Source of the DNA: Lolium rigidum
Taxonomy: Eukaryota > Streptophyta > Magnoliopsida > Poales > Poaceae
Length of the DNA stretch: 64,000 bases
NCBI RefSeq assembly: GCF_022539505.1
Contig: NC_061510.1
Coordinates: 101,696,292 to 101,760,291, forward strand
Direction of reading: 5' to 3'
Shown here one piece after another: positions 3,055-64,000 of this stretch (its first letter is position 1; each line of letters starts with the position of its first letter). A program made the translations under genes and the position numbers. The notes beneath the pieces are model-generated. The model was not told the DNA's origin. It saw only the letters and a list, made by a program, of their open reading frames with translations, and did not search any database.

Positions 3055-3222
3055 CGCTACTTTCACATCACCCTCGTTACTAGTGCTTTTCCAGGTGCAG
3101 CTGAATTGACAACTCAGTTGTTAAGGATTATAAGTATTCTTTACCTCCCCTTGTGTCGAATCAATAAATTGGGTTTTACTTCCCTCGAAGACTGTTGCGA
3201 TCCCCTATACTTGTGGGTCATC
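3055..3222 (+). repeat. LTR terminal fragment ending GTGGGTCATCA
   Basis: This is 168 bases of the end of an LTR of the class whose other strand starts TGATGACCCACAAGTATAGG, a common Triticeae repeat recalled from memory. It ends at 3222 directly against Tat-element sequence, so it is probably the 3' edge of another nested insertion whose body lies in the gap. The first five bases after it are CTTGT; the matching target duplication is not visible. Confidence 0.6.
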
Positions 3223-3372
3223 ACTTGTCCAAACCTCGCTTCTGGGGAGGGCCTCGTCGGTCAGACTCGATGCCGGGGAAACGGTCCTTGGCCTGAAAGA
3301 ACAAGAAAGATAAAAAGGGGTTAATCACAATGCAAAAGTTACGCAGTACGCCGACCCGAGTTGCGTAACTTC

Positions 3373-4504
3373 TTACATCTTGGGTCGGGGGTTAGTGGAA
3401 CCGAGAGGCCGAAGGCCCCATTCCCAATCCTCCGGCATGGCGGTCTGACAAATCTGGCCGGCCTTGAGGACAACGTCCTTCTTGCTAAGAGGAATTCCGG
3501 TGATCTTTGTAGGATCACCGGGACCGTACATCTCGCCCATCTTGTGCATGCGGCGCTTGAGCGGAAGCACCCGGCGCGAGCTAAAAGGCGCGGATGATAT
3601 CATCTGAGCAGATGTTGATGTCCTTCATCAATTGCCTCATAAAGCGTATAATCCGGTTGGTCTCTATGTGAGACTCCTTCGGATTGTAGCTCCAGTTGGC
3701 CCTCGAGGGTGGCGCCGGATTGAAAGGTGGCAGGTTGATAAGGTCTGCGGCGCCCTTGTTCTTCACGTAGAAAAAGGTCCCTTGCCATAGCCGGCATGAC
3801 TCGAGACCGGAGAACTTGAAAAAAGGGCTCCCTTGACGGGAGCCGATGATGCAAGACCCGCATTGAACGTGGGGTTTGGGTTTAGGAATTTCCTTGCCCT
3901 GAACGGAATCGATCCGAAGAGCAAAGAAGCGGGCAAACGTCTCGCGAGTGGGACGAATGCCGATATAAGCCTCCATGAAGGTGGCATAGCAAGAGAGGTA
4001 GAAGATGGCGTTGCCGGGAGATGGTGAGGTTGAAGTTGATAAAAATCGAGGAAACGCCGGAAGAAATCGTGAGGCCGGAAGGCCGAAGCCGCGCTCAAAG
4101 TGAGCAAGAAAGACAACTCGTTCACCGGGTTCGGGCACCGGTATGATCTCGTCGCGAGGAAGCCGGCAGGTCACTCCTTCCGGAACCCTCCCGGACCGGT
4201 AAAGCCGGCCGATCTCGAACTTGGTAACGTTGGAGCCCATCCAGGCCCCACGGGTGATACCGGAGGAATCCATACCGGAACCTTCACTAGAACTACCGGA
4301 TGCACGATTGCTACCGGACTCAGCCGTCCATCCGGCAAGATCGGCGGACGAGTCCGTCGGAAGATCTGCTACGCCGGCTAGCGGAGGAAGAGGCAGAAGA
4401 AGAAGTAGAGGAAGATTCCCCACTAGACATGGAATTTGGCGAAGAGAAACAAGAATCCCACAATATACCCCCGCGTGAAGATCTACGAAGGAGAGAAAAA
4501 GCAA
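3373..4504 (-). pseudogene. Antisense extra ORF of Tat element, resembling Pfam 'putative gypsy type transposon' (PF04195) proteins
   Basis: A 307-codon minus-strand ORF (3581-4504) has a Ser/Glu-rich N-terminus, then a conserved block with LPRDEIIPVPEPGERVVF, HFERGFGLPAS, GNAIFYLSC, and NLPPFNPAPP near the C-terminus. I recognise this block from grass proteins annotated as PF04195. Around 4020-4080 the expected text (FFRRFLDFYQLQPHHLP) is in another frame, so two compensating small frameshifts are present. A further shift at about 3590 moves the C-terminus (RRVLPLKRRMHKMGEM...) into the 3373-3603 frame. The gene runs opposite to the element's own direction. Molecular function unknown. Confidence 0.65.
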
Positions 4505-4589
4505 GAAAAAGAAGAGGTAAATACACTACCGAGACGAGATCTGGAAAGCAAGCAAAAGAGGGGCAAATTCAGATTAACCCTAACCTGAG

Positions 4590-4903
4590 GCGGCGGAGTT
4601 GCTGAGGAAGAAGTTCGCCGGAGGAATGACGAGCCAAGGGCCGGCGAGGAAGTCCATCGGCGGCGAGGTGAGGAAAAGCTCGAAGAAGCACCAATGCCGC
4701 GGCGGGGGCAGAAGCGCTGCAGGAGTTCTTCACGCGGGGAAGTCCGGCGAAGTCCGGCGAAGCAGTAGCGAAGATTCGCTGGGCGGCAGAGCTCAGGCGG
4801 CGAAACGGAGCGGCGGAGGCGCAGAGAGCAAGGAGCACTTGTGCGCGAGGAACTGGAGAATGCGAGAAGAGGAAGAAGGATGAGCGGTTCCCCCTTATAA
4901 GGA
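4590..4903 (-). promoter_or_regulatory. Candidate antisense promoter, leader and splice donor
   Basis: On the minus strand CCTTATAAGG (around 4894-4903) could act as a TATA box. It is followed by a GC-rich leader and a CAG/GTTAGGG donor-like site near 4590, upstream of the ATG at 4504. This suggests the antisense ORF had its own spliced transcription unit. Inference from motifs only. Confidence 0.35.
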
Positions 4904-5364
4904 AAGGGGAGTCGTGGGCCGAAAACCGCTGGGCTTCGGCGGTTTGGGTCGTGGGCCGCGACGGTTCGCCCCACGGGCCGCCACGTGGCATGGTGATACA
5001 CGCGAGAAAATAGTAAGCCACAGGAAGGTGCACACGGATCCAGAGAGCTGGTTGGGATTCACTGTGAAGCAATTAATGCGCGCGCAGAAGCCGAAGGGAA
5101 GTGACCCCTGACACTGGCGCGTCAGTCACAGTGCGCATGTCACTGACAGGCGCGGGGCCCGAGATATTCTCGACTTCGCCGAGGAAGTGTTTAATGACTA
5201 AGATGCCGGAGGATAAGACACCGGATAATGTCTTGTGAAAAAGAGATAGCCATGATCCAGGCAAAGGTGCCGGGATCCAAACCCAATGCCGGATAGATTA
5301 AACCGGTATCCTAAAATAAAAGAACTCTGGCATGGTCCGTTGGATAGGATCCGCAGACTATACC

Positions 5365-5379
5365 AGCTTCGGGGACTAA
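5365..5379 (+). other. Polypurine tract of Tat element
   Basis: AGCTTCGGGGACTAA lies directly before the TGTTGGGG start of the 3' LTR, the expected plus-strand priming site. It sets the element direction as plus here. Confidence 0.7.
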
Positions 5380-6101
5380 TGTTGGGGGGATGACCCCGGT
5401 ATGCCAAAGGCATGCCAAACCGGATGGTTTGAGCCATCAAGATACCGGTTTAATGTTCGTACCGGAACGTAAAGATAGGAATTAGGCTAAGTGAGGCTAA
5501 GCTCGTATCCCCAAGAGGGGTATGCCGGAACCGGATAAGAAGATACCGGCTACCGGAAGGAAGAGCGTGTCGGCACGACTGGTCAAAGATTCTCTCCAGA
5601 GCTAGAAGACAAGGATGAGCTAAGCAAAGTAACTTTAAATGAAGGGCTGACGATAAAGAGAAGGATGACGGTCAAAGAAGCCGGAGGACGTCAGCATCCT
5701 TGATTAAAGAGGACTCCGGTGTCATCTACGATTAAAGTAGCTTTATAAAGTAGTTTGTCTAGTCAAAGATGCCATTAGGGTTTCTTGCCTTGTAAGCCAC
5801 CCTCTCCCCTATATAAGGAGAGGGGGCAGCCCTTCTCACGGGGAAACGCACGAAGAGAGCTAGGTTTAGAAGAACACTTGTACTGAGAAACTTGTAACCT
5901 GTTGAGATCAATAAAGAAGATGATCTAGAGCGAGTTCTTCCTTATGTCTTTCTTCTTCAACCTCTAGCCTTGGCTAAGTTCTTGAGGAAACCATCCGGAA
6001 GTTCATCCCGTCTAATCACAAACCCTCCCCCGAATCCTCTTGCGTCCATTCGGCCCCAACTTAAGCCATCCTATGGCATCTGTCTGTTCACCACGACGAC
6101 A
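5380..6101 (+). repeat. 3' LTR of Tat element (722 bp)
   Basis: The LTR starts TGTTGGGGGGATGA and ends CACGACGACA. It matches the reverse complement of 47794-48517 (724 bp) throughout. A TATA box (CCTATATAAGG, about 5809-5819) and a downstream pyrimidine/purine-rich leader mark the element's promoter. The LTR is bounded on the right by the target duplication GAACC (6102-6106). Confidence 0.9.
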
Positions 6102-6366
6102 GAACCTTATGAATCTCTTCAAGAAGTTGTGCAAGGATTTCGGTCATTGGGAAATTTCAACACTGTAAACCCTGCTGAAAGGCGATATATTCCACACCCG
6201 GCGCTACTGAGGACAGGCAGGTAGAAGGCCATCGCAGCGCATCCGGAATGATATGGATGAATCTGAAGCAGGAGGGCCAACGAAACAATGTTTCCTATGC
6301 AATGAATTTGGTCACTGGGACACTAATTGTCCAACCTTCGGCACTAGCACAGCAAGAAGGGGGCAG
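6102..6366 (+). pseudogene. C-terminal piece of MULE transposase with CCHC zinc knuckle
   Basis: The first codons read LMNLFKKLCK, the phrase expected right after the RNKN at which the transposase on contig C (48518) is interrupted. Further on, after a frameshift near 6222, comes a tail typical of MULE/FAR1 proteins: YIPHPALLRTGR, a basic linker, and CFLCNEFGHWDTNC, a C-x2-C-x3-GH-x4-C knuckle. The frame then runs into E1 and resumes at 26776 with an RGRRGRGRN basic end and TAG at 26812-26814. Only about 100 codons remain after the interruption, so the middle of the C-terminal half, including any SWIM finger, is deleted. Not functional. Confidence 0.7.
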
Positions 6367-7850
6367 TGATGTCTACGCACGCTTCTATTCCTGTAGACAG
6401 TGTTGGGCCTCCAAGAGCAGAGGTTTGTAGAACAGCAGCAAGTTTCCCTTAAGTGAATCATCCAAGGTTTATCGAACTCAGGGAGGTAGAGGTCAAAGAT
6501 ATCCCTCTCAAGCAACCCTGCAATTAAGATACAAGAAGTCTCTTGTGTCCCCAACACACCTAATACACTTGTCAGATGTATAGGTGCATTAGTTCGGCGA
6601 AGAGATAGTGAAATACAAGTAATATGGATGATTATAAGTAGTAATTGCAATCTGAAATAAAAATGGCAGCAAGCGAACATGTAACAGAACTTGTTGGAAA
6701 CGGTGTTTCAATGCTTAGAAACAAGGCCTAGGGATCATACTTTCACTAGTGGACACTCTCAACAATGATCACATAATAAATAAATAACTTCTCCTCACTT
6801 GTGCTACTTTCAAACACTCTCTTGTTGGATAACAAACATCATTCATTGTGTAGGGCTATAAGCACACCTCAAGCCGGAGTAAACAAGCTCCACAACTTCA
6901 CGGAGTTCATATTAAAGTAACCTCTAGAGTGCATAATAGACCATTGCAATTTAGACCGAGTACTAACTAGCATACACACTGTCAACAATAGCTATGAAAG
7001 GGGGAATAGATCGCATCAATACTATCATAGTAATAGTTAACTTCATAATCTACAAGAGATTACAATCATAACCTACGCCAAGTACTACATGATGCACACA
7101 CTGTCACCTTTACATCATGGAGGAGGAATAGACTACTTTAATAACATCACTAGAGTAGCACATAGATTAATAGTGATACAAAGCTCATGATCACATAAAG
7201 ATCACACCATGGGAGAGAGAGATGAACCACATAGCTACCGGTAGAGCCCTTAGCCTCGGGGGAGAACTACTCCCTCCTCATCATGGGAGACAGCAACGGC
7301 GATGAAGATGGCGGTGATGTCGATGGAGATGACTCCGGGGGCAATTCCCCGTCCCGGCGGCGTGCCGGAACAGAGACTTCTGTCCCCCAAAACGGAGTTT
7401 CGCGATGCCGGCGGCGTCCCTGGAGTCTTTCTGGAGTTTCGTCAAATGTTGTAGGGTTTTCACGTCACGAGATATTATATAGGCGAAGAGGCGGCGCAAG
7501 GGGGTGCTTGGGGGGCCCACCCCATAGGGCGGCGCCCCCCCCCCTCCTAGGCCGCGCCCTGTGTGGTGTGGGGGCCCTGGGCCTCCTCTCCGGCTGCCCT
7601 TCGTTGTTCTGGTCCGTCTCGGTGAAATAAGATGTTCGGCTTTTGTTTCGTCGAATTCCGAGAATATTGCCCGAACAGCCTTTCTGGAACCAAAAACAGC
7701 AGAAAACAGGAACTGGCAACTTGGCATCTTCTTAATAGGTTAGTTCCGGAAAATGCATAAAATCATTATAAAGTGTGAGCAAAACATGTAGGTATTGTCA
7801 TAAAACTAGCATGGAACATCAAAAATTATAGATACGTTGGAGACGTATCA
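6367..7850 (-). repeat. E1 3' LTR
   Basis: In plus orientation it starts TGATGTCTACGCACG and ends GATACGTTGGAGACGTATCA. It is nearly identical to 25291-26770. A short GC-rich block near 7340-7580 gives several spurious ORFs on both strands. Confidence 0.92.
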
Positions 7851-8197
7851 AGCATCCCCAAGCTTAGTTCCTACTCGCCCTCGAGTAGGTAAACGATAAC
7901 AAGGATAATTTCTGAAGTGACATGCTACTATCATAATCTTGATCAATACTATTGTAAAGCATATGAGATGAATGAAGTGATTCAAAGCAATGGTAAAGAC
8001 AATGACTAAACAATCGAATCATATAGCAAAGACTTTTCATGAATAGTACTTTCAAGACAAGCATCAATAAGACTTGCATAGGAGTTAACTCATAAAGCAA
8101 TAAATTCTTAGTAGAAAGTTTTGAAGCAACACAAAGGAAGATATAAGTTTCAGCAGTTGCTTTCAACTTCAACATGTATATCTCATGGATGTATATC

Positions 8198-9857
8198 TGA
8201 TGTCTACGGGAGCTTCTATTCTTGTAGACAGTGTTGGGCCTCCAAGAGCAGAGGTTTGTAGAACAGCAGCAAGTTTCCCTTAAGTGGATCACCCAAGGTT
8301 TATCGAACTTAGGGAGGAAGAGGTCAAAGATATCCCTCTCATGCAACCCCGCAACCACGAAGCAAGAAGTCTCTTGTGTCCCCAACACACCTAATAGGTG
8401 CACTAGTTCGGCGAAGAGATAGTGAAATACAGTGGTATAAATAAGTATGAGCAGTAGATAACGCAGCAGTAGTAACGCAAAGAAACAAGTAAACAAGCAA
8501 GCTGATAGCAATATTTAGGAACAAGGCCTAGGGATTACACTTTCACTAGTGGACACTCTCAACATTGATCACATAACAGAATAGATAAATGCATACTCTA
8601 CACTCTCTTGTTGGATGATGAACACATTGCGTAGGATTACATGAACCCTCAATGCCGGAGTTAACAAGCTCCACAATTCAATGTTCATATTTAAATAACC
8701 TTAGAGTGCATGAAAGATCAACACGACTAAACCAAGTACTAACACAAGCATGCACACTGTCACCTTCACACTATGTAGGAGGAATAGATCACATCAATAC
8801 CATCATAGCAATAGTTAACTTCATAATCTACAAGAGATCATAATCATAGCCTACGCCAAGTACTAACACGGATGCACACACTGTCACCATTACACCGTGC
8901 AGGAGGAATAAAACTACTTTAATAACATCACTAGAGTAGCACATAGATAAATTGTTATACAAAACACAATGCAATCATAAAGAGATATAAATAAGCACTT
9001 CACTACGCCATTCATAACAGTGAATAAGTATTCTGTGAAATATAGCCTAAGAGACCCACACGGTGCACACACTCGTCACCTTTACACACGTGGGACAAGG
9101 AGTCTCCGGAGATCACATAAGTAAAACCCACTTGACTAGCATAATGACATCTAGATTACAAGCATCATCATATGAATCTCAATCATGTAAGGCAGCTCAT
9201 GAGATTATTGTATTGAAGCACATAGGAGAGAGATGAACCACATAGCTACCGGTACAGCCCCGAGCCTCGATGGAGAACTACTCCCTCCTCATGGGAGACA
9301 AGCAGCGTTGATGGAGATGGCGGTGGTGTCGATGGAGGAGCCTTCCGGGGCACTTCCCCGTCCCGGCGGCGTGCCGGAACAGAGACTCCTGTCCCCCAGA
9401 TCTTGGCTTCGCGGTGGCCGCGGCTCTGGAAGGTTTCTCGTACCGTGGCTTTTTCCGTCTCGAGGTTTTAGGTCTGGGACCTTTATATAGGCGAAGAGGC
9501 GGCGTCAGAAGGTCGAAGGGGCGACGACACCATAGCGGGGCGCGGCCAAGGCCTGGGTCGCGCCACCCTGTCGTCTGGGGCCCACAGGGCCCTCCTCTGG
9601 CGGCTCTCGGGTGTTCTGGATGCTTCCGGGCAAAATAGGAACCTGGGCGTTGATTTCGTCCAATTCCGAGAATATTTCGTTACTAGGATTTCGAAACCAA
9701 AAACAGCAGTAAAACAGAACCGGCACTTCGGCATCTTGTTAATAGGTTAGTTCCAGAAAATGCACGAATATGACATAAAATGTGCATATAACATGTAGAT
9801 ATCATCAATAATGTGGCATGGAACATAAGAAATTATCGATACGTCGGAGACGTATCG
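8198..9857 (-). repeat. E2 3' LTR
   Basis: Starts TGATGTCTACGGGAG and ends GATACGTCGGAGACGTATC; the final A is G (9857). The polypurine phrase (GCATCCCCAAGCTTAG on plus) follows. It pairs with 20426-22091. Confidence 0.92.
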
Positions 9858-11810
9858 GCATCCCCAAGCTTAGTTCCTGCCGTCCCGAGCAGGTAAACGA
9901 TAAACAAAGATAATTTCTGGAGTGACATGCCATCATAAACTTGATCATATTGTAAACATATGTAATGAATGCAGACGATCAAAACAATGGTAATGACATG
10001 AGTAAACAATCGAATCATAAAGCAAAGACTTTTCATGAATAGTACTTAAAGACAAGCATCAATAAGTCTTGCATAAGAGTTAACTCATAAAGCAATAAAT
10101 CAAAGTAAAGGTATTGAAGCAACACAAAGGAAGATTAAGTTTCAGCGGTTGCTTTCAACTTGTAACATGTATATCTCATGGATAATTGTCAACATAGAGT
10201 AATATAACAGGTGCAATATGCAAGTATGTAGGAATCAATGCACAGCTTCACACAAGTGTTTGCTTCTTGAGGTGGAGAGAGATAGGTGAACTGACTCAAC
10301 ATAAAAGTAAAAAGAATGGTCCTTCAAAGAGGAAAGCATCGATTGCTATATTTGTGCTAGAGCTTTTATTTTGAAAACATGAAACAATTTTGTCAACGGT
10401 AGTAATAAAGCATATGAGTTATGTAAATTATATCTTACAAGTTGCAAGCCTCATGCATAGTATACTAATAGTGCCCACACCTTGTCCTAATTAGCTTGGA
10501 CTACCGGATCATCGCAATACACATGTTTTAACCAAGTGTCACAAAGGGGTACCTCCATGCCGCTCGTACAAAGGTCTAAGGAGAAAGCTCGCATTTTGGA
10601 TTTCTCGCTTTTGATTATTCTCAACTTAGACATCCATACCGGGACAACATGGACAACGGATAATGGACTCCTCTTTAATGCATAAGCATGTGGCAACAAT
10701 TATTATTCTCATATGAGATTGAGGATATATGTCCAAAACTGAAACTTCCACCATGAATCATGGCTTTAGTTAGCGGCCCAATGTTCTTCTCTAACAATAT
10801 GCATGCTCCAACCATTAAGGTGGTAGATCTCTCTTACTTCAGACAAGACGGACATGCATAGCAACTCACATGATATTCAACAAAGAATAGTTGATGGCGT
10901 CCCTGAAACATGGTTATCGCACAACAAGCAACTTAATAAGAGATAAAGTGCATAAGTACATATTCAATACCACAATAGTTTTTAAGCTATTTGTCCCATG
11001 AGCTATATATTGTAAAGGCGAATGATGGAATTTTAAAGGTAGCACTCAAGCAATTTACTTTGGAATGGCGGAGAAATACCATGTAGTAGGTAGGTATGGT
11101 GGACACAAATGGCATAGTGGTTGGTTCAAGGATTTTGGATGCATGAGAAGTATTCCCTCTCGATACAAGGTTTAGGCTAGCAAGGTTTATTTGAAACAAA
11201 CACATGGATGAACCGGTGCAGCAAAACTCACATAAAAGACATATTGTAAACATTATAAGACTCTACACCATCTTCCTTGTTGTTCAAAACTCAATACTAG
11301 AAATTATCTAGACCTTAGAGAGACCAATTATGCAAACCAAATTTTAGCAAGCTCTATGTATTTATTCATTAATGGGTGCAAAGTGTATGATGCAAGGGCT
11401 TAAACATGAGCACAACAATTTCCAAGTATCAAATTATCCAAGACATTTTACCAATTACTACATGTAGCATTTTCCGTTTCCAACCATATAACAATTAACG
11501 AAGCAGATTCAACCTTCGTCATGAAAAATAAAAGCTAAGAACACGAGTGTTCATACGAACCAGCGGAGCGTGTCTCTCTCCCACACAAGCATGAATTTAT
11601 TCAAACCAAACAAAAATGAAAACAAAAGCACATAGACGCTCCAAGTAAAGTACATATGATGTGACCGAATAAAAATATAGTTTCAAGAGAAGGAACCTGA
11701 TAATTTGTCGATGAAGAAGGGGATGGCTTGGGCATCCCCAAGCTTAGATGCTTGAGTCTTCTTGAAATATGCAGGGATGAACCACGGGGGCATCCCCAAG
11801 CTTAGAGCTT

Positions 11811-12982
11811 TGTTATCACCAGAATTTAACCGAGTTAGAGGTGGGCCGCAATCAAGGTGGGTTTAAAGGAAGTATACATGGAGAATTATGTGAATCGGCC
11901 TGTTATGCTAAGTTGGGCTTCATTGCCCTTGTATCTGTAAAATATTAGATTGCATCTTAGTTTAGAAAGTAGAATCTTACTCGTGCACGGTTAGTGCACG
12001 CCCACATTAGAAAGTCCGCTGGACTATAAATATGTACCTAGGGTTTATGGAATAAACAACAACTCACGTTCAACCCCAAACAAACCAATCTCGGCGCATC
12101 GCCAACTCCTTCGTCTCGAGGGTTTCTATCGGGTAGCGACATGCTGCCTAGATCGCATCTTGCGATCTAGGCAGCACAAGCCCCACGTTGTTCATGCGTT
12201 GCTCGTATCGAAGCGCTTTTGATGGCGAGCAACGTAGTTATCATTAGATGTGTTAGGGTTAGCATTGTTCTTCGTTTAAGCATGCTTACGTAGTGCAACC
12301 CTTGCATATCTAGCCGCCCTCACGCCTATCTCAGTGTGGGGGCGGCACCCCGCTGATCATTATTTAGTAGATCTGATCCGTTACGATTGCTCCTTGTTCT
12401 GCAAGGATTAGTTTAATATCTGCAATAGTTAGGCCTTACAAAGGGGGGGAGGATCCAGTGGCACGTAGGGTGGCGTTCGCAAGTCCTAAACAGGATGTTC
12501 CGAGGACCAACGTCATGTTGGTGGTTTGGCCTTGTTTAGGATCGGCTTACGAGCACCGTGCGTGGCCGCGAGGCCCAACCTGGAGTAGGATGATCCGATT
12601 ATGCGGTGAAAACCCTAAATCGTCGTAGATCTCATTAGCTCTATCTTGATCAAGCAGGACCACCAAGTATTCGTGCACCCCGTACGAATCATGGGTGGAT
12701 CGGCTCTTTGAGCCGATTCACGAGATAACCCGAGAGCCGATCGAGGCTCGTATTTAACGTTTACATGTATGCCCTGCAGAAACTAAGCGAGGCATCCCCA
12801 TCACCTTCCCGACCAGGTATAGGTCAGGTGGCACGCCCTGCACTTCGCATCGCCGCGTGTGACCAGAAGAGCATTGCGGGCCGTCGCTCGGAGGGGTCTC
12901 AGCCAGCCGCAGCTCTAGGCTCTTCCCGGCTCTACGGTGTTGACAAGGCCGCTGCCCGCCGGTGGGTTTTTGGCAGTCAACA
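11811..12982 (+). repeat. E3 5' LTR
   Basis: TGTTATCACC...GGCAGTCAACA. A TATA box (CTATAAATATG, about 12024-12033) precedes a leader with three hairpins: arms TGCTGCCTAGATCGCA (12142-12157 / 12161-12176), CGTTGCTCG (12197-12205 / 12226-12234) and GCCGCCC (12313-12319 / 12340-12346). Confidence 0.92.
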
Positions 12983-12987
12983 CATTC

Positions 12988-13005
12988 TGGCACGCCCGGT
13001 GGGAC
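12988..13005 (+). other. Candidate primer binding site of E3
   Basis: TGGCACGCCCGGTGGGAC begins five bases after the LTR and starts with the TGG expected opposite a tRNA CCA end. I could not assign the tRNA. Confidence 0.6.
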
Positions 13006-13043
13006 AATCGTCTACATCAACCACATCGCCATCTACATCTGAG

Positions 13044-15811
13044 ATGGCGGCGGACGGCACGCCAGTCACCTACGAGGAGCTACCTGCCGAGCTCAAGAAG
13101 AAACATGACGAGATCAAGGCCACCCTCGAAGCCGACCTCATCGGCTCTTTTCAGAGAACCCGTACCCATGGCATCAGATGGAAGGGATTCTCACCGCAAG
13201 GTGCACTCGATGGGATGGACCTCTCTACCCCGTCGGAGGAACGCACCAGGGGACTGCGGCAGGAGATCAACTACTTGGTGGCTCACTCGCTACATCGCCA
13301 CTCTGAAAACTTGGTCAACGTGTTGGAGCGTGTCGCTCTGCGCGTAATCCAGGAGATCATGAGCCGCCAGTACTCGCCGTCAGGACCAGCTCTCGGGACT
13401 CATCGAGGAGAGTTGCCATTCCAGTCCCGTCCACCGCTGCCATATGCATTGGCAGCACCTGCTGAAGTGCCGACTACACCGGCATTCCTCGTCTACAAGA
13501 TTGGTGGTGACCCTAGTGACTACCAGTTCTTAATGGGGGCGCCTAAGGAGATCCCTCAAGGATACGCGTGCACGTATGTGCCAGATTGTGGTGACTGGGC
13601 ACTCACAAACTAGGCCACAACATCGGGGACTCCGGCGAAGACAGGAGGGACGTCAGCAACAGAGCTCGAGAAGCAGACGTGGCTAACTAAGTACGCCACA
13701 CCGACGAAACTCCCGAGCCCAGCTCCTGCAGTTGGCTCAGAGCTGGAAAAGCAAACGTGGCTGGCTAAGTACGCCACCCCGGCGAACCTTCGAGTGCAAC
13801 TCCTACAGCCAGCACAGCGGATCAGATCGGTACTCATACCGAGAGACCAGTTCGGCATGGTGCCGAAAGAAGGGCGATCGGCTATTCCAAGCCGTACCCC
13901 GACGATTACGAGATGATCCCGCTGCCACCTAAATATCGGCTCCCGACTTCTCCAAATTCAGTGGATCAGATGGCTCCAGCTCCATCGAGCACGTCGGCCG
14001 ATATTTGGCTCAACTAGGACCGGCTTCGGTGTCGGATCAGCTACGCGTGAGGCTCTTTCGCAGTCCCTCACGGGATCGGCTTTTGGATGGTATACCTCTC
14101 TGCCGACAGAACTCCATCCAGTCTTGGAAGCAATTGGAAGAACAGTTCCATATGCAATACCATTCAGAAGCTTCCGAGTCTCGGCATTGCCGATCTAGCA
14201 CAACTACGTCGAAGCGCGGGAAACGGTGGCGAGTACATCCAGCGCTTCAGGAATCTTAGGAACCGATGTTATTCGGTTCGTATAACCGAAAAGGAAGCGA
14301 TCGAGTTGGCGTAGCCGGCCTTGCAACACGGCTCAAGGACATGGCCTCCCAAGCAGATTATCCTCGCCGGCGCACATGGTTCGAAACTATCAGCATATGA
14401 ACAGCGCCACCCGGGACCTGTACTCAAGACAAGTTCAAACGTGCAGTAGTCATGGTCGATACGGAGGAAGATGAAGTGCCTGCGGGAGACCAAGAAGTAG
14501 CGAGGCTGAGTGGACTCGGGGAGAGACCCCGTGTCCCGCAAATGGGTAAAGCCACCAGGGCCGCCCAGGGGATTTGATTTTGACGTGACCAAGACCGAAC
14601 AAATCTTCGACCTCCTGCTCAAGGAGAAACAGCTTGACGATTCCCGAAGGTCTCAAGTTCCCCACGGCGAAAGAGCTGAACGGAAAGCCGCATCGCAAAT
14701 TCCACAACTCGCTCTCCCATGCCACCAACGACCGCAGGGTGTGGCGTCAAGCACATCCAAGCGGCGATAGAGAAGGGGCGGCTAATTTTCAACCAGTACG
14801 CCATGAAGGTCGACACCCAACCCTTCCCCGCCGTTAACATGGTGGAAGTCACCTACCCCGAGGGTTGCCAGCCAGGTCCCTCGTTCAGCATCAACATGGT
14901 AGGACCTGGGAACCACTCTGGCAAAGATGGAGATGAGGGCAGCTGCTCTCATAGCAAGGATACAGAGGAGGCCGCTCCACGCGATCGGCTCCGTCATGAC
15001 GGCAAGCGCTATGTCACAGAGGGAGAGGTGAAGAATATAAGATATCAGCGACCCCTCTCTGATCACCTCCTCAACAAATATGTGAGTCAGTTTGACCAAC
15101 GCCGACGGTCCAATTATGATGATAGAGGAGATCGTCCGGCTAGAGAAGCCGAAGATATCGTCGGCGGGATCGCGATAAGGAGGAGCACGAGCGCCGTGCC
15201 ACGGAAACATCAAGGGAGCAAGATGACAACGCCGGACATCGGGACTGCCCCTTCTTCGTACACTCGCCGGGATTCAGGAATGAGCCGATTGCCCACAATC
15301 GGCAATTGCCCGAATGCAACAAGAAGAAGAAGGAGGCAGCCAACGTGTCCGTGTTCGAGCGCCTAGGGCCTCTCCCGCCACAAAGCAAACGCGCCGAGTC
15401 ACCTCGTTGGGCAGATCTTGAGGATTCGGAAGACGAGGGAGAAGTAGAAGAAGACAGTACCACCGGCCAAGGTGGTGCCCCGACGGACTCAGCCGTTCCC
15501 AAAAGCGCAGGGTTCAGCGATTGCGCGGCCTGGAGGAAGCCGAAAGGTTATACCTGCACACGCTAAGGAAGGCACGACCTGATCTGGCTGCAAAGGTTCA
15601 GCGAGCCCTGGATGAAGAAGGTCGTCCACGGAAAATGGAGTGGCGCCCTAAACAGAGGAAAGCCGATGATGAGACATCGGCTGGTACAAACATGGTACTC
15701 GTCTTGCCGACAGAGCTTCGTGCCCCACGACTCTACGGCGCACTCAAGGTGGACGACAGCAAGCGCATCAAGTCAGAGGTTGGGTTGGTTTTATCCAGCC
15801 TAACTGAATAG
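13044..15811 (+). pseudogene. Degenerate gag of E3 (Retrotrans_gag type)
   Basis: The first frame (ATG at 13044, stop at 13613) begins MAADGTPVTYEELPAELKKK. Homology continues in shifting frames. Around 13940-14320 is the core gag block (SDGSSSIEHVGRYLAQLG, SWKQLEEQFHMQYHSEAS, YIQRFRNLRNRCYSVRITEKEAIELA). From about 14560 follow EQIFDLLLKEKQL and GRLIFNQYAMKVDTQPFPAVNMVEV, then an acidic C-terminal part (DLEDSEDEGEVEED near 15420) ending about 15811. At least five frameshifts and several stops break it. Gag packages element RNA in cytoplasmic particles; this copy cannot make a full-length protein. Confidence 0.75.
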
Positions 15812-16915
15812 CAAGATCAAACCAATGAGCAAATCGGGCAAGGCTGATCCTTGTGATAAAACCTTCAGCGAGCAAAACCTTCAGCGAGCAAGCAACGTGG
15901 AGGCCGATTCCAGCAATCGGCCAAAATTATCCTCACCCACCATTCTGCCTGGGTTCAACATGTTATCCAACAGAGCCGATACCATCAATTCTCTTGACAG
16001 AATCGGCTCGGGGGGGCACCCCGGTAGATAAAATACGAGGATATGCAACGGAAGCATCTCATCTTCTGGTGATGGGTATTGCAATATGGGGGCCGATGCA
16101 CAGGTCGGCCGTAAAAATATATGAAAATTCGAAAATTTTCGAGCACAGCCGATGCAGCAGACATCGACTTAAGGATATGAAAGCCGATGCATGGCCATCG
16201 ACTCAAGAGGAGTAACTGTTACGATCAGAGGGTCAATGGAGCACAAAGGGAGATATTTTATGAAGGAACTCCTCAATGGAGTAGTTTGGAAGCTCAGATC
16301 CTCTCTTCAAGAACAATGTCAGGAGCAGCCTGGGCATGCAGATCAGGTCAAAGATGGATTGCATCAGGTCCACCAAAGGGAAAGCTCGGGGGGCAGTGCA
16401 CCTTGAAGGCTTTCCGCTTAGCGGAGCCGATTTTGTGTTCAAATCGGCTGGCTCTGCATAAGGAGCTTCCCCACACACGATCAAGCCCAGGTCTATGCAG
16501 CTCATTTACGTATCCTCGTCTCTGTCTTGCCTTGGCTGAGACTCGGGGGGCAACAGGCCTGGTAGGTGCTCTATTGAAGGGCCGATTGAAGTAACATCGG
16601 CTGATCTTCGTTGCAACCTTCTTCACAAAACGATGAACGCTCGCTAAGGAGTTGAAGAATAGAAGGATGAATGTCGAAGGACCGAGGCGTTGTTATCGGC
16701 TCATTACGCATTGGCAAAGGGGACGAATCGGCAAGGTCAGTAGAAGAGAGAATCGGCTCAATTAAACTCAGAAGGAATCGGCAAAATCAAAATTGGGGAA
16801 AAGTTCTTCATTGATTAAGATGAGATTTCTTACATAAAGGGCTAATTACTCTCAAAAGGGAAATACTAGGGGATCCATCGCCCCATCTGCTACTACTGGC
16901 CCTATTCTAGAGGTC
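15812..16915 (+). other. Non-coding hairpin-rich spacer of E3
   Basis: No coding homology is seen. The stretch is dense in AGCCGAT/ATCGGCT, often as perfect inverted pairs: 15902-15909/15915-15922, 15973-15980/16002-16009, 16091-16096/16105-16110, 16425-16433/16441-16449, 16581-16586/16596-16601. It occupies the place where pol would be in an autonomous relative. Confidence 0.6.
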
Positions 16916-16917
16916 CT

Positions 16918-17440
16918 ATCTATGGGCCATCACTGCCCTCGTCGTCGCCGTCGTCGCCACTATCGGCGCTGCTCCCGGCGGGCTCGTCGTCGCTCCAATG
17001 GCCGCCGACCGGGCCCTCGTTGTCTTCATCTTCTTCGTCAGCGTCGTCCTCGCCGCTGTCGAAGTCGCTAAGATTGCCCGGCCAAGGGCAGGACCGCTTG
17101 GCCGGCGGCTCGTCGGAGGAGCTCTCGTCGTCGTCCTCCTCCTCCTCTTCCTGCTCCTCCTCCTCCCCGGAAGAGGCGAAGTCGCAGGAGAAGCTGTCGT
17201 CGTCACTCTCCTCCTCCGTTTCCCCAACAGCGAGGAAGCGGAGGTCGCTCTCCCCGTCCGTCGAGGACTGGTCGTCCTCGGACCGAGATGGAGAAGTCGT
17301 GGTCTCGACTCCTCCCCGGCCGCAATGGCGCGGCGGGTGTTGGCCGCGTGGACCGCCGCCGCGTTGTACTCCGGCGTCGGCTCACGGGATGTGGAGGGTT
17401 GGCTGGCAAGATCCGATGGGGCAGAGGAGGAAGAAGACAT
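16918..17440 (-). pseudogene. Antisense acidic extra ORF of E3
   Basis: The minus-strand ATG at 17440 gives MSSSSSAPSDLASQPSTSREPTPEY, a start typical of antisense extra ORFs in Tat-lineage grass elements. Downstream the plausible continuation lies in another frame and is extremely acidic: stretches such as EEEQEEEEEDDDE and DADEEDEDNEG, ending SDGP and TAG at 16918. One or two short indels near 17285-17320 separate the parts. A TATA-like CACTATATC on minus (about 17508-17516) lies some 70 bases upstream. Such extra ORFs are known in the literature but have no assigned function. The plus-strand serine-rich ORF across the same DNA is a shadow. Confidence 0.6.
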
Positions 17441-17712
17441 GGTGGCTGGGAGGGCTTTTGGAGTGCTAATGCGAAGGAGAAGAACTGTGCAGAACGGTCA
17501 AATCAAAGGAAGATATAGTGGAAATTCAATGCCACAGCAGTTTCCGAGGGAGTGGTGCCTAAAAAAGAAAAAAAAACTGCCAGGTCACGCGGAGAAGTTG
17601 AGAAGGCAAGGCATCATCGTGAGGGATACTGTGACGTTTCTGCCACGACATGACCCGACGAAGGAAAGCAGAGTGATTTTGGAATTACCAATTCCAAAAC
17701 CAGGGGGGCATG

Positions 17713-22091: not shown

Positions 22092-22096
22092 ATATC

Positions 22097-47773: not shown

Positions 47774-47791
47774 GCCCCACGGTGGGCGCCA
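47774..47791 (-). other. Primer binding site, tRNA-Lys type (Tat element)
   Basis: Plus strand GCCCCACGGTGGGCGCCA equals the 3' end of plant tRNA-Lys; the complement on minus adjoins the LTR end two bases away. This proves that 47794-48517 is a 5' LTR reading minus. Confidence 0.8.
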
Positions 47792-47793
47792 AC

Positions 47794-48517: not shown

Positions 48518-50197
48518 GGTTCTTGTTCCTGAATTGTGTGTAAAAATTGGCCCCCAGGTGGCGCATGCACCAACGGCTCTGAATGTCAATCCATGGCGTT
48601 TCTTGCCCTGGCTCTTTGAGTGTCTTAACAGCTTTCAGTATACCTGCATGCCTGCCATGAAGGATGCAAACATTCGGCGTGTCCTTCACAATTGAAATCT
48701 TCAACTGTCTGAAGAACCATAACCAGCTTTCGGTGTTCTCACTCTCCACGAATGCAAAAGCGAGTGGCACGATTTGATTGTTTCCGTCCATTCCAATGGC
48801 GGTCAAGATTTGACCCTTGTACTGACCGGTCAGAAACGTGCCGTCCACACATAACACGGGTCGACAATGCCTGAAAGACTCGATGCAGACACCGAACGAG
48901 AAAAAAGCTCTATGCAGAACCCTGTAAGTTGGGTACTCTGGCAAAAAACAAGTCCTGGATGTTTATATATGTGTCTGGGTTCCTCTCCTGCAGTGTCCGC
49001 AACAAACGAACAACTGCGTCGTATGCGTCTCGAAACGACCAAATCTCATCTCCAGCGCCCTCTGTTTAGCCCCCAAGCCTTGCCATAAGAAATGTTGTAC
49101 AAATGATGCTTCTTCACATTCTTAATTATGCCCCTTACTCCCATGGCTTGCCCTTCCACTATTTCAGTGTACAGCAGCCGAGCTATCAGATTAGACGACA
49201 GGTAGCAATGGTCGCTGCGGATACTAGCAAGCTCACAAGTGTGCGCCACAAAGTCGCTCACACGCCATGTTATGTCATACTTAGGAACATACCCATGCAC
49301 CCTTCCAGGACAATTGATGTCATGGCATTCCATCGGCAGGTATTTTCCAGATGACACGGTTGTTCTGAGCAACCTTTGGGTCGCCATTGCCCACTTAACT
49401 ATTGCATCCTGCTTATGTCGCTTGGACGGAAACATAGCCCCTACGACGACATTATTCTGGTGATACTCCCAGTTAGAATCAAGGCCATCGTTGATTGTCA
49501 TTGCAGATGAAAAGTTCTGATTCCATCTGCCAGGAATAGGCACCTCCGCGCCATCATCAGACCCATCGGAATCATCAGCATCACTTTCACCTTCTGTATC
49601 TTCCTCTTCCATCTGGTTCTGCATGTATCCATTTTCTTCATCACCATCAACCTCACCGTCTTCTCCTACGTAACCATCACCCTGACCACCATAAACATCT
49701 TCCGCATGACTGCTCTATCTAGGCTTGTAACCACCGCCACCACCGGGTGCTTGACTGCTCTGGCCTGATTCATAACCACCGCCACCGCCCGGTGCTTGAC
49801 TGCTATGGCCTGATTCGTAACCACCTCCTCCACCATAACCGCCTTCAGGAGGCGCTACCTCCTTCGCCACCGGAAGAACTAATGCCACAGGGTTAGTTCC
49901 TCTCCTATCAGACCCTTTTAACCAGCTCACCCACTTAGAGGTATCATCTACAGGCCCCAGATACCATAAAATGTTTGATAACGACTTAGTCCATAATGCA
50001 TGCACACCCAGTGTGTGCACTTCAGGATTAAGCCCGAAACATTCTGTCAACCAGTTCTTCACCTGCTCAATTGTCCATGTTCTAGGGGCAGTCAAATTCA
50101 TCTCTACGGACTTGAACTCACTCAGATCAACTCCCATCTCATTTGATCGGACACTACCCAAACCATAGTAAAATACTATCTTCACTACATCTGTCAT
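48518..50197 (-). pseudogene. MULE transposase (mudrA-like), N-terminal two thirds
   Basis: From the ATG at 50197: an N-terminal domain (MTDVVKIVFYYGLG...), a Gly-rich repeat (SSQAPGGGGGYESG, twice), then a TAG at 49715-49717. The same frame continues with an acidic stretch (EEEDTEGESDADDSDGSDDG), the MuDR-type DNA-binding region (WEYHQNNVVVGAMFPSKRHKQDAIVKWA, CPGRVHGYVPKYDITWRVSDF) and KAWGLNRGRW. Small shifts near 49010-49030 and 48930 lead to the MULE catalytic domain (LHRAFFSFGVCIESFRHCRPVLCVDGTFLTGQYKGQ). The first Asp (VDGTF) is present, but the second, normally in a DRHAGI phrase, reads GRHAGI. It stops at RNKN, where the Tat LTR begins. Transposases of this family cut and paste DNA in the nucleus; this copy is dead. 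Confidence 0.8.
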
Positions 50198-50933
50198 CTT
50201 TGCTCACCTAAAAAAACATTCGTCCGTGTCAACTACTAAAACCAGCCCACATAAATACACTAACACTAAAACCAGCCCACATTAACCTACACAGTTAGCA
50301 CTACTATGCAAAGATTAGGGTTTACCCTTGTAGCGTGAGCAGCCTCTCCAACTGCAGCAGCACGAACAGCATGAACAACACGCAACAGCTCAGCACCACC
50401 ACGAACCAGCAGCAGCTCAGCCCCTTACACCACCACCAACCTCCACCACTTCATCACCATTGCTGCTAAACAGCACCACCAATCCTCTCCAAAACCTAAC
50501 CCATCTGTAGATCGAGCTTCCCTCAACTAATAGCAGTAAAATTGTGAAGTTTTATTGGCTAAATCACTAGGGATCTGCGAAATATGGTGAAGTTTTTGAG
50601 CTGTTCTTGTGCAGCCAGGGAAGAAAGCGAGCAGGAAAGAGAGAAGGGAAGAAGAGAGGAGAGAGGAGGAAGAAGAAAGAAGAAAAGGGAGGCCGGGGAG
50701 AGAGCGTCTGCCCGAGGGCGTCTGCGCGTGGTCGGGTTGAGCGACGTCTGCACGCGCATGGCCGGGCCATGCCACGCTTTGGCTGCTAGCGTCCGATCGG
50801 ACTGCAGCAGTCCGACAGGGTGCTGTCGTCTGACGGGCCACTGCAGGGACCTGCAATCGGCCTGCTACGGTCCGATCGGCCCGCTCCTGTCCGATCGGTC
50901 TGTTGCATGCCGATAGAGTCATACTTTTGGATT
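50198..50933 (-). other. MULE leader and subterminal region
   Basis: Between the transposase ATG and the terminal repeat lies a CA/CAG-rich leader (50330-50510), a purine-rich stretch (50617-50700) and a block of GTCCGATCGG(A/C/T)CTGC repeats (50780-50910) shared with 30050-30080. Such subterminal repeats are typical transposase-binding sites. The overlapping small ORFs are not supported. Confidence 0.5.
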
Positions 50934-50999
50934 TTTTTGAAAACGCGTGATAGTCCTGGAATTAAATAATTAATTCGTATTATTTAAAAAAAAAATCGC
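50934..50999 (+). repeat. MULE terminal repeat, transposase end
   Basis: Nearly the same 66 bases as 30105-30171 (two extra A, one G/A change), on the same strand as that copy in this assembly. The outer flank begins CCAGAACTTTG, the complement of CAAAGTTCTGG. Confidence 0.75.
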
Positions 51000-53030
51000 C
51001 AGAACTTTGATATGCTTTAAAGAGACATTCCAAAACCAAATCCATGTAAGCTAACTTGAAACTCGGTGTAACCAACTTTTTGATTCCACGGTCAATACAT
51101 GGCCTTAAGCGAGTAACAAGAGGCAAAATACGGTTGTGCCAATTTCAAAACCGCTCTTAAAAAGTGTGATGCAAACAACACACACAAGAAATGTTCCCCC
51201 GAAGTGAAACCCGGTAGCACCGAACAGAAAAACTGGGACTTGGTCACGTCAATAACAGAAATGTTTTTTAGAAACACCAAATCAGAACCAGACTGGTTTC
51301 TAATGCCAATCAGGACGACCTTCAAGGACAAATGTCCGTAACTCTAAATACAAAGGCCATTTTTGTTAGCACCGGTTTCAACAAAAGCCACATCACTTTG
51401 AAACTCTAGGAGACAGAATTGGAAAGCAGTTAAGTCCTAGCCCTCGCAACAGGGGCCAAAAATGGTAGCACCAACATCAAAACCGGTCATACCAAAAGTC
51501 ACACAAATTTGTACGTATATTACGATATTTCAAATAATATGTTGTAAATGAGTGATCCTAATTGGCAAAACATTCAAGTTTCGCCCACTCGATTAGGTAT
51601 CTTACCCATATTTATTGTACAAGCTCTCCTATACTCAATGTGAGTATTCAAACTACCAAAACAACTAGAGAAGCATCACTAGTCTTCTAGCTTTAAGCCA
51701 TCATTTCTCCTTAATATTTTACGGGGTTGACAACCATCAAAAAAAATTAAACCAATTCTTCTTGCTATATCACCTTACACTTAAATACATTTGTTATTAA
51801 TCAAAGGCAACTAGTGGCACTTGATGGACTTCGAAATATCTTGTTGAACCGTGGTCCAACCATATCTAAAACAACACATTTTATTTGGGACCAACTTGTT
51901 TTGGTATTATTATATTTTGTGATGTCATGTGAAGTTAGTATCGTTAGAAGAAATACTTATAAGGCTGGTCATAATGGGGAGTAACTTACACACTAGTAAC
52001 ATCCATATATTACTAATTTATGTTAGTGCCTACATTGTAGATAGCAACTAATATGTGGTTTCATGCATTATTTTATTTATTATGTTATAGACCCATCTTG
52101 TCTTGGAGTAGCTAACAACATGCTCTCGATGAGAGAAAAACCCAATCCTCTATGAAGCAAGAGTACAAGCTCAAGTGTGTGTGCTTATATGGGACTAAAA
52201 TTCCCGAGGGCGACATGAATTCACTAGCATCTGAGTTCTAAACAACAGGTAAATATTTTTTCAAGCTTTATTCAATTAGGGGCGGAGGCTAAGTTAGGTG
52301 CAGCCATAAATATATGCAAATACACCTCTTATGATGTGTCCTAGAGCTATTTTCATGAGCAAGTATAGGAATCATTAAGATATAAATGTCCCACCATAGC
52401 CATAAGATCATTGGTTCCCGACATAAACCCCTCTAATGCAACCCATATTATTGGAAGACAGTTTATGTCATTCTGACCCTTCCAACACTAATGCATTACA
52501 TTAAAGTGCAGCTCTATGAGCCCATATAGGTGAAGTAATATGCAGTCGACGTTCATATAAAACCATCATAGAACAACATAAAAGATAGAAAACTTGACCA
52601 GATACTTATTGCACATCATATAGAATCATAGCCAGATCATCATGTGCCCTCAGAAACGTGGGGAACTACTCACAAGTGTCGAACAAGATATGGACTAGAG
52701 GCATAATGATTAAAACACAATCTGAATATATAATCTCGCCACCAAATAATGACAATGTACCAATTACGAACATGCAATAGCACTAAAATAATATATGGGG
52801 TTCAATTCAACAAAAAACTATGAGGGGGGTGACCTCGATCTCGTAGATGGAGAGGATGGTGATGATGGAGATGTTGATGAAGATACTTCCTCCCAAGCCA
52901 AGGAGGAGTGGGGATGTTGATGGCGTCGATTTCCTATTCACCAGAGGCACATGTGCAGTAGGATCCGCCCTCTCCCGAAGCAGGAGAGGACTTTCGCCTC
53001 CACCGCCACATCAATAAATTTTGGGAAAAT
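51000..53030. other. No gene seen; possible MITE near 51961-52140
   Basis: AT-rich, low-information sequence. Words like CCGGTAGCACCG recur at 51200-51500. AAGGCTGGTCATAATGGGGAGTAAC at 51961 resembles one end of a MITE common in grasses, but I do not find a convincing partner end. No coding homology. Confidence 0.35.
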
Positions 53031-61595: not shown

Positions 61596-61734
61596 CTATG
61601 TATTTTTTTTATTTGGGCACATTAATTGCCTTGTAATTTTCCTAGTTATTTTATTTGTGTATGTAATTGTGTGTATCATTGATATCAGATTTTAGGCTCA
61701 TGAAATTTAATGCAAGTTGACTAGTCAAACAACC

Positions 61735-62392
61735 AGGGCCCTACAACAGATTGGGCCGGCCCATTAACAGTAGTGTGGGACCCACTTTCATTTTGGGCCG
61801 GCCCGTTAACACGATAGTTGGCCCACCTGCTTATTGGGCCAGCCCACTATCTTGTTGGGCCAGCCCACTTGCTATATGGTGGACCCCACATACTAAGCGG
61901 GCCTGTCGTTTAACAGGCAAGTGGGACCCACCTGTGTTTTGGCCCGGCCCACTATCTTGTTGGGCCGGCCCACTTGCTATATGATGGACCCCACATACTA
62001 AATGGGCCGGCCCTTTAACAGGAAAGTGGGACCCACCTGCATTTTTGGCCCGGCCCACTTTCTTGTTGGGCCAGCCCACTTGCTATATGGTGGACCCCAC
62101 ATACTAAATGGGCTGGCCCTTTAACAGAAAGTGGGACCCACTGCGTTTTTGGCCCGACCACTATCTTGTTGGGCCGGCCCACTTGCTATATGGTGGACCC
62201 CACATACTAAATGGGCCGGCCCTTTAACAGGAATGTGGGACCCACCTGTGTTTTTGGCCCGGCCCACTGGGTTGTTGGGCCAGCCCATTTGATCTATTGT
62301 GGACCCCACGTACAAAATGGGCCGGCCCGATAGCAGGAAAGTGGGACCCACATGCTAATTGGCCGGCCCAATAAATTTTTGGGCCGGCCCAC
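61735..62392 (+). repeat. 105-bp tandem array with GGGCCGGCCC
   Basis: Units centred on TGCTATATGGTGGACCCCACATA start at about 61870, 61974, 62081, 62183 and (variant) 62290, spacing 103-107. Each carries GGGCC(G/A)GCCC palindromes and GTGGGACCCAC. The array is truncated at 62393 by an LTR. Confidence 0.8.
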
Positions 62393-63646
62393 TGAAAGGA
62401 TCGTATGCCGCACCTAGAGGGGGGGGGGTGAATAGGTGCTAACCAATTTTTAGTTCTTTTTCAGTTTAGGCTTGACACAAAGGTAGATTCTCTAGATATG
62501 CAACTAAGTGAATTTACCTATATGACAAGATAAGCAACTAAGCAAGATATAGCTACACAATATAAGAGATAGAATAGGATAGAGGTAACCGAGAGTGGAG
62601 CACGCGATGACACGGAGATGATTCCCGTAGTTCCCTTCCTTTGCAAGAAGGTACGTCTACGTTTGGAGGAGTGTGGTTGCTACGAAAGCCAAACCAATGC
62701 AGCCACGAAGGCTTCACTCGGATCGCCCGTGAGCAACGCCACAAAGGCCTAGCCCACTTCCACTAAGGGATTTCCTCAAGGCGGAAACCGGGCCTTTACA
62801 AGGTTCTTGGGGCACACATCCACAACTGAATTGGAGGCTCCCAAATCCGTAACAATACAACAATCAACAACAACACATCAACACAAATCAACTAGGGAAC
62901 CAAATAGGAACACTAGCATGAGATCCCTCAAACAAATGAGGGGGAAATGAAAAACGCTTCGGTGAGGATGTAGATCGGTGGCTTCTCCTTCGAATCTCCA
63001 AAGATCAAGAGATTTGGTTGGGGGAGGAAGGAGATCTTGCAAATCTTGTGTTTCTTGAGGTGGCTCTAATGGAGGTGAAGCTTGCGTATTTCTTGTGCAA
63101 TGATTGAGCAAAGGGGGAAGGAAGAAGAAGAGGGGTATAAATACCCTCCCCAAAATCCAGCCGTTGAGCCTTCCGGGGGCCGGATAATCCGGCCTAAGTT
63201 AGGGCCGGATAATCCGCCCCCCGGATAATCCGGCCTCCCGGTACAAAACCAGGACAATGTCCGGCAACTGTCCGGCCCCTATCCGGACACGCATTTCTTC
63301 GGGTCCTTAGCCGTTTTCGAGGGGGCGGATATTCCGAAATATCCGGCCCGGATAATCCGGCCCCGGGACAAAACCAGGACAATATCCGGCAATTGTCCGG
63401 CCCCTATACCGAGCCGCATTTCCTCAAGTCCTTAGCCGAAATTCAGGGGCCGGATATTTTGGAAATATCCGGCCCGGATTATCCGGCCTCGGTGAGCTTT
63501 TTGTCGATACTTTTTGACAAAGATCGACCACATCCAACACACATACAGATGTATCTATATAATCCTTGTACCACTTAAACAAACATTAGTGTATCACATA
63601 CATTGACATCAAACACTCAAAACATAATATGAGAGATGTTCTTTCA
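62393..63646 (-). repeat. 3' LTR of a Copia-like retrotransposon (1254 bp)
   Basis: The edges are TGAAAGGATCG and GTTCTTTCA, a 6-bp terminal inverted repeat (TGAAAG/CTTTCA). On minus a polypurine tract CAAAAAGGGGAGAT (about 63647-63660) precedes the LTR, so this is a 3' LTR reading minus. CCGGATAATCCGG palindromes cluster at 63180-63490. The phrase CATCAAACACCAAAAAGGGG before the LTR is one I recall from grass Copia elements of the SIRE/Maximus type. Confidence 0.75.
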
Positions 63647-64000
63647 ATCTCCCCTTTTTGGTGTTTGATGACAATATACGGATTTGCAAGAGAATTACTA
63701 TAGAGACAAGCATGATGGCAAAAACATAGAGGCACTCCCCCTACATGTGTGCATATAAGTAATTTGCATTTGAATACAAATACACAACACATAGGAGCGA
63801 GGTGCCTCAACACAAGAGGTATCCATCATGAGCTCTCACAAGAGACATAAACATATATGAAGTTGAGATAGGATGCTAGAAATCATACCCATGTGTAGAT
63901 ATATGATACGGAGATATAGCATCACACATAATATAATAGCCTTGATCTCAACATATAGAAATCCGAAAACCATAACAATGTCTCACACCACATAGCACAT
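63647..64000 (-). mobile_element. Interior of the Copia-like element, continues out of the window
   Basis: AT-rich sequence next to the polypurine tract. No coding frame is seen in the 350 bases available. Confidence 0.6.

What the first reader, a model, noticed from the sequence alone, without database searches (positions are those of the whole stretch)
3055..64000. Contig C (41138-64000) appears inverted relative to contig B: scaffold error or inversion
Three independent structures are split between contigs B and C in opposite orientation: a Tat element, the MULE that hosts it, and the MULE transposase reading frame. Placing the reverse complement of contig C before contig B repairs all three at once: 5' LTR and 3' LTR in the same direction, terminal repeats inverted, transposase then PMD gene on one strand. 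Both contig joins are 100-N placeholders. The gap would then have to hold the EC 3' LTR, the Tat pol region and the rest of the LTR whose end is at 3222.
Basis: partly seen in the sequence, partly recalled or inferred. Interest (0 to 1): 0.93.

Follow-up and report, generated by a model that had tools for sequence, protein, structure and literature searches.

The report
Contig placed backwards in plant scaffold
Two neighbouring contigs of a plant chromosome scaffold face opposite ways across an unsequenced gap, cutting one transposon and the retrotransposon inside it in half, and the likely cause is an ordinary scaffolding error rather than a real DNA inversion.

Summary
Contig B (3055-41037) and contig C (41138 on) carry, in opposite orientation, the two halves of one Mutator-like transposon (MULE) and of the Retand/Tat-like retrotransposon inserted in it. 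Four marks agree on the original adjacency (reverse-complement C, then B): the Tat duplication GAACC is split between the contigs; the MULE duplication CAAAGTTCTG is split too and occurs nowhere else in the window; the transposase frame continues from C into B at the exact base (best of 75,271 window words); and one other MULE copy in the same genome has the empty Tat site. Both joins are 100-N placeholders. B is 37,983 bp, between contigs of at least 102,954 and of 100,839 bp. The likely cause is a misoriented contig, probably B flipped in place; reversing C instead gives the same adjacency and is not excluded. A 98% identical second copy of B's right end, on another contig 1.1 Mb away, shows duplicated sequence (likely a haplotig) in this scaffold. 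A real inversion would postdate the Tat insertion (about 0.4 My) and need both breakpoints in N gaps. No reads, Hi-C or second assembly could be examined. Useful as a correction; otherwise ordinary.

The parts
2955..3054 (.). Gap 1, 100 N (join A-B)
41038..41137 (.). Gap 2, 100 N (join B-C)
3055..41037 (-). Contig B, 37,983 bp, complete in the window; inferred orientation relative to contig C is reversed (x -> 44092 - x if flipped in place)
3055..3223 (.). LTR-like end (..GGGTCATCA, 169 bp; called an LTR by its terminus) of a further element nested in Tat: the other Tat copies listed in the genome match only from about 3215-3223 on; not the EC family
3224..5379 (+). 3' part of the Tat/Retand-like internal region, with an antisense ORF (3584-4525, -) matching PF04195 Transposase_28
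5380..6101 (+). Tat 3' LTR
6102..6106 (+). Tat target-site duplication GAACC, right copy
6106..6366 (+). MULE transposase, continuation after the Tat site, with a zinc-knuckle-like end (below Pfam cut-off); interrupted by element X
6367..26770 (.). LTR retrotransposon X (TSD GGCAG) with nested Y (8198-22091, TSD ATATC) and Z (11811-18884, TSD AGCTT), wholly inside B
26776..30165 (+). MULE right part: predicted transposase C-terminus, PMD gene (PF10536, 27348-28443), right terminal inverted repeat from 30052
30166..30175 (+). MULE target-site duplication CAAAGTTCTG, right copy (8 bp if the outer C/G belong to the TIR)
37203..38923 (+). GDP-mannose pyrophosphorylase gene (PF00483, PF25087; the name VTC1 is recalled) on contig B
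41138..46138 (-). EC element: internal 41138-44536, 5' LTR 44537-46138; 3' LTR missing, cut by gap 2
46139..47793 (-). 5' part of the Tat internal region; begins with a primer-binding-site-like stretch (label recalled) at 47792
47794..48517 (-). Tat 5' LTR
48518..48522 (-). Tat target-site duplication GAACC, left copy
48518..50203 (-). MULE transposase N-terminal half (PF09322, PF03108 below cut-off, PF10551), with frame breaks
50884..50999 (-). MULE left terminal inverted repeat
51000..51009 (-). MULE target-site duplication CAAAGTTCTG, left copy

Best explanation
Contigs B and C stand in opposite orientation to the arrangement in which a MULE and its nested Tat/Retand-like element inserted, and this is likely a scaffolding error in which one contig, probably the short contig B, was placed backwards between two 100-N placeholders. 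Shown: both elements are split, and their target-site duplications, LTR order, terminal repeats and reading frame fit only rcC-B (equivalently rcB-C). Inferred: that no real inversion happened, and that B rather than C was turned. The presumed mechanism, untested, is that contigs broke at young nested LTRs the assembler could not resolve (A ends inside an LTR, B starts in an LTR-like end, C starts about 110 bp from one by comparison with Y), leaving no overlap at the joins, and that long-range data oriented a 38-kb contig weakly.
For: Tat TSD GAACC on both contigs, with the 5' LTR in C and the 3' LTR in B. MULE TSD CAAAGTTCTG only at the two flanks. In-frame transposase junction: aligned to the C half alone, 96 of 120 listed relatives could be read 12 residues on, and the best-scoring word in the window is B 6106-6141; in an earlier alignment to the joined peptide 95 of the 120 were usable and all 95 continued with at least 4 of 12 B-side residues. 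Empty-site paralog L048, one copy read: bases 1-75 match rcC 48591-48517 at 98.7%, bases 69-101 match B 6101-6133 at 97% (33 bp only), with one GAACC. Of 11 PMD-bearing relatives listed I scanned 10: in 9 the PMD lies downstream of the transposase domains, one showed PMD only. The PF04195 antisense ORF sits just before the 3' LTR in B, as in Retand elements (passages of PMC11963269, PMC7264820). Both joins are bare N; no overlap among 2-kb contig ends. B is much shorter than A and C. A 98% second copy of 33409-41037 starts exactly at another 100-N gap. Published: orientation errors rise for short contigs (passages of PMC7672694, PMC6719893).
Against: No read, Hi-C or second-assembly evidence could be examined. 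The second copy of B's right end is in the same (+) orientation as B; if that contig is oriented correctly, C and not B is the turned one. Contig A gives no test: its end lies in nested LTRs, and the 5' half of an older Retand there was not found in A, B or the fetched part of C, so the A-rcB join is unverified. I do not know how this scaffold was built or oriented.
Confidence: 0.9

Rival explanations
1. A real, young inversion: the chromosome (or the assembled haplotype) truly carries contig B inverted relative to C, with breakpoints inside the nested retrotransposons of the two gaps.
For: The sequence proves only the ancestral adjacency; both present joins are unsequenced, so breakpoints could lie there, and repeats in the gaps could have mediated it.
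Against: Both breakpoints would have to coincide with N gaps. It must postdate the Tat insertion (LTR K = 0.0098 +- 0.0036, 0.38 +- 0.14 My at a recalled rate of 1.3e-8). No inverted repeat was found between the 2-kb ends of B, and the EC-family elements at the A end and C start are in direct orientation, which does not favour inversion between them.
Confidence: 0.06
2. The reader's version, a sub-case of the best explanation: contig C (and what follows it) is the reversed and displaced one, while B is right.
For: Gives the same repaired adjacency. The second copy of B's right end lies in + orientation like B.
Against: Needs reordering as well as reversal of a 100,839-bp contig; a longer contig should be easier to orient than B.
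Confidence: 0.25
3. Two unrelated Tat and MULE copies: one half-element happens to end contig C and another contig B.
For: The MULE family is multicopy in this genome (39 other places among 40 scored of 327 candidates, up to 97%), as is the Tat family.
Against: Exact match of two independent target-site duplications and of the reading-frame junction. No second copy of the MULE flanks was seen (51000-52104; 30166-30269 and 30544-31800), within lists of 40 scored candidates each.
Confidence: 0.01

Closest known systems
Contig orientation errors in scaffolds (HiC-Hiker, PMC7672694; SALSA2, PMC6719893; Lolium perenne Kyuss v1.0, PMC10940895 and PMC12376112; passages seen)
   Same: Contigs in wrong order or orientation between gaps, reported as commoner for short contigs; in Kyuss v1.0, scaffolded on barley, order and orientation errors were suspected and two pseudo-chromosomes were reversed
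   Different: Here it is detected from transposon anatomy alone; no contact map or reads were available, and the scaffolding method of this genome is unknown to me
Retand lineage of Ty3/gypsy (Tat) LTR retrotransposons
   Same: LTR TG..CA, 5-bp TSD, antisense ORF with PF04195 before the 3' LTR
   Different: No reverse transcriptase, gag or pol domain was found in the two pieces in the window; it would lie in the gap, or the copy is non-autonomous. Lineage not tested by phylogeny
Mutator-like elements with a plant mobile domain gene, as in Lolium gene models
   Same: PF09322, MuDR-like and MULE domains, then PMD on the same strand; long terminal inverted repeats
   Different: This copy is decayed (frame breaks, stops, sequence lost after the Tat site) and carries nested retrotransposons

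Membership tests
Scaffold orientation error | Joins are placeholders without sequence | tested here: met
   100 N at both joins; no overlap of 2-kb contig ends
Scaffold orientation error | One linear element divided between contigs in opposite orientation | tested here: met
   Tat and MULE TSDs, frame junction, one empty-site paralog
Scaffold orientation error | Reads or contact maps support the other orientation | not testable with these tools
   No reads or Hi-C held
Real inversion | Sequenced breakpoints in the present orientation | tested here: not met
   Both joins are N
Real inversion | Inverted repeats at the breakpoints | tested here: inconclusive
   None between the sequenced ends of B; gap contents unknown
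MULE | MULE transposase domain | tested here: met
   PF10551, E 1.3e-19
MULE | Terminal inverted repeats and 8-11 bp TSD (range recalled) | tested here: met
   118-column repeat and 8-10 bp TSD once one contig is turned
Retand/Tat LTR retrotransposon | Antisense PF04195 ORF between pol and 3' LTR | tested here: inconclusive
   3584-4525(-), E 1.8e-07, antisense and just before the 3' LTR; that pol lies on its other side could not be seen
Retand/Tat LTR retrotransposon | Reverse transcriptase places it in the lineage | not testable with these tools
   No pol domain in the pieces present

The most novel reading that the evidence does not exclude
A genuine inversion of at least 38 kb carrying VTC1, less than about half a million years old, with both breakpoints inside stacks of nested retrotransposons, perhaps still polymorphic in an outcrossing grass.
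Probability: 0.06. Interest if true: 0.4.

Novelty: not a real feature. Interest (0 to 1): 0.15.

Why it matters
Uncorrected, the scaffold would report a false 38-kb inversion around VTC1, put the gene on the wrong strand relative to its neighbours, and hide one MULE and one Retand-like copy from annotation. The method is of modest general use: target-site duplications split between contigs give a base-exact, read-free check of contig orientation in repeat-rich genomes.

Tried and rejected
Two independent half-elements: rejected on matching duplications and frame. The end at 3055-3223 as the missing EC 3' LTR: rejected; the EC LTR starts differently and the best similarity (scores 12-19 to EC and A) is not above 30 shuffles (top five 17-20). 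The older Retand in contig A as the missing part of the window's Tat: rejected, only 69-80% similar. Genes on contig C for synteny: no Pfam domain at E 0.001 in six frames of 51002-64000, so no gene-order test. A second copy of the MULE flanks that could bridge the element: none among the scored candidates (lists capped at 40 scored, and the tool warns that no match does not show rarity). The second copy of B's right end runs about 70 bp past 41037 and then into a retroelement, which matches several elements in the fetched region, best one at 67.4-71.8 kb in contig C (92%); of what follows I read only L045 and L046, with stretches between and beyond unread, and saw no unique match to the A end or C start, so it did not show B's right neighbour. 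A 10-kb query from contig A returned repeats only, not even itself. Paper searches for target-site duplications as a misassembly or contig-orientation check: no paper held all the terms. One search printed False for the TSD of Y because my coordinates were one base off; the sequence printed shows ATATC on both sides.

Full report
What was checked. The window lies on C3:101696292-101760291 of a 2.44-Gb genome in 1764 contigs. It holds two 100-N runs, 2955-3054 and 41038-41137. With 100 kb fetched on each side, contig A is at least 102,954 bp, contig B exactly 37,983 bp and contig C exactly 100,839 bp. The best-scoring named relatives of the MULE transposase are mostly from Lolium multiflorum and L. 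perenne, so a ryegrass or near relative is likely; no call names the species or the assembly.

Tat element. The LTRs 5380-6101 (+, B) and 48517-47794 (-, C) align over 722 bases with 7 substitutions and 2 single-base gaps. The C copy is followed, in its own orientation, by a primer-binding-site-like stretch (label recalled) and is therefore taken as the 5' LTR; the B copy ends the element. Outside them stands GAACC on both sides: reverse-complement C reads ..AAGAACC|TGTTGG and B reads ..CGACA|GAACCTTATG. Random 5-bp agreement was 211 of 200,000. The B part carries an antisense ORF with PF04195 just before the 3' LTR, which the literature gives as typical of Retand elements (passages of PMC7264820 and PMC11963269); that fits B holding the 3' end on the plus strand. 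No gag or pol domain was found in the three sense frames of either piece, so the lineage rests on this ORF alone, and the missing middle would lie in the gap or the copy is non-autonomous.

MULE. The terminal repeats (30052-30167 and 50884-51001 as aligned) lie in direct orientation as assembled and become inverted when one contig is turned. Their outer flanks then show CAAAGTTCTG on both sides, a 10-mer with only these two occurrences on either strand of the window. Three retrotransposons nested wholly in B (X, Y, Z) show ordinary 5-bp duplications by the same reading, a positive control for the method.

Reading frame. The C half ends ..RHLGANFYTQFRNKN and the B side begins LMNLFKKLCKDF, in frame when the duplication is counted once. 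Of 120 listed relatives (182 found), 96 could be read 12 residues past the C half when aligned to that half alone (dropped: 11 low score, 11 ending early, 2 too short). Scoring their continuation against 75,271 stop-free 12-residue words in six frames of the window gave B 6106-6141(+) first with 39.9, the next 21.9. Of the 11 listed relatives with a PMD domain I scanned 10 (P0109 left out): in nine the PMD follows the transposase domains, in P0011 with a PMD score below Pfam's cut-off; one (P0081) showed only PMD.

Empty site in the same genome. The C-side transposase DNA has 39 other places among 40 scored of 327 candidates, the best 97% identical. I could read the sequence beyond one of them, on C6: bases 1-75 match reverse-complement C up to 48517 (98.7%), bases 69-101 match B 6101-6133 (97%), with one GAACC between. 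The B-side match is only 33 bp long, because the window's copy has lost sequence after it; farther on the C6 copy carries a retroelement LTR. A search with the B part of the MULE did not complete.

What it means. The adjacency reverse-complement C then B, the same as reverse-complement B then C, is shown. It is not shown whether the chromosome was later inverted or the scaffold is wrong. For error: both joins are bare N, 2-kb contig ends do not overlap, B is short, and three of the four ends lie in or next to LTRs. Passages of PMC7672694 and PMC6719893 report that orientation errors increase for short contigs. The first Kyuss ryegrass assembly, scaffolded on barley, had reversed pseudo-chromosomes (passages of PMC10940895 and PMC12376112); the same passages report the later ryegrass assemblies as correct by Hi-C, so the genus as such proves nothing. 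This scaffold holds a second, 98% identical copy of 33409-41037 at C3:100587110-100594755 whose contig begins exactly at another 100-N gap, most simply a retained second haplotype. A real inversion would have to be younger than the Tat insertion, about 0.38 +- 0.14 My at a recalled substitution rate, and have both breakpoints in gaps.

Which contig. Flipping B in place (x to 44092 - x) is one change. Against my preference, the second copy of B's end is also in plus orientation; its own orientation is unverified. Contig A could not decide: its right end is EA, inserted in an LTR of a sister element (EA0), itself inserted in an older Retand whose 5' half I did not find in the fetched stretch (the integrase reading of the EA0 flank is by eye), so gap 1 is probably also more than 100 bp.

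Gap content. By comparison with Y, EC lacks about 110 bp and one 1.6-kb LTR; Tat lacks its middle; the element ending at 3223 lacks its rest and is not EC's, and the other Tat copies listed in the genome match contig B only from about 3215-3223 on. The 100 N of gap 2 therefore stand for several kilobases at least (inference).

Noticed in passing
window 33409-41037 and G000:C3:100587110-100594755: A second copy of the right end of contig B, VTC1 included, 98% identical, 1.1 Mb upstream on C3 in the same orientation; its contig starts at a 100-N gap. Likely an unpurged haplotig, so VTC1 copy number here may be inflated.
   Followed up: partly
window 26776-28450; P0011, P0025, P0034, P0046, P0076, P0084, P0091, P0106, P0112: The MULE family carries a plant mobile domain gene downstream of its transposase, and gene models (eight from Lolium, one from Paspalum) fuse the two.
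   Followed up: partly
window -30000..2954 (L016-L018), contig A: EA retroelement inserted in an LTR of a sister element (EA0), which sits in what reads by eye as the integrase region of an older Retand on the minus strand; its 5' half was not found in the fetched stretch.
   Followed up: partly
55750-56914, 58314-59121, 59365-60178, 61750-62393: Tandem arrays with units of about 135 bp (three blocks) and about 105 bp on contig C, no Pfam domain around them.
   Followed up: no
34604-34760 (+): PF04827 Plant_tran match, likely a PIF/Harbinger-type transposase remnant upstream of VTC1.
   Followed up: no
43610-44281 (-), 24359-25126 (-), 19684-20271 (-): The EC, X and Y elements have similar minus-strand ORFs (start ..MENN/MENI..); the one scanned (43610-44281) has no Pfam match. 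X, Y, EC and EA share sequence and look like one related group.
   Followed up: no
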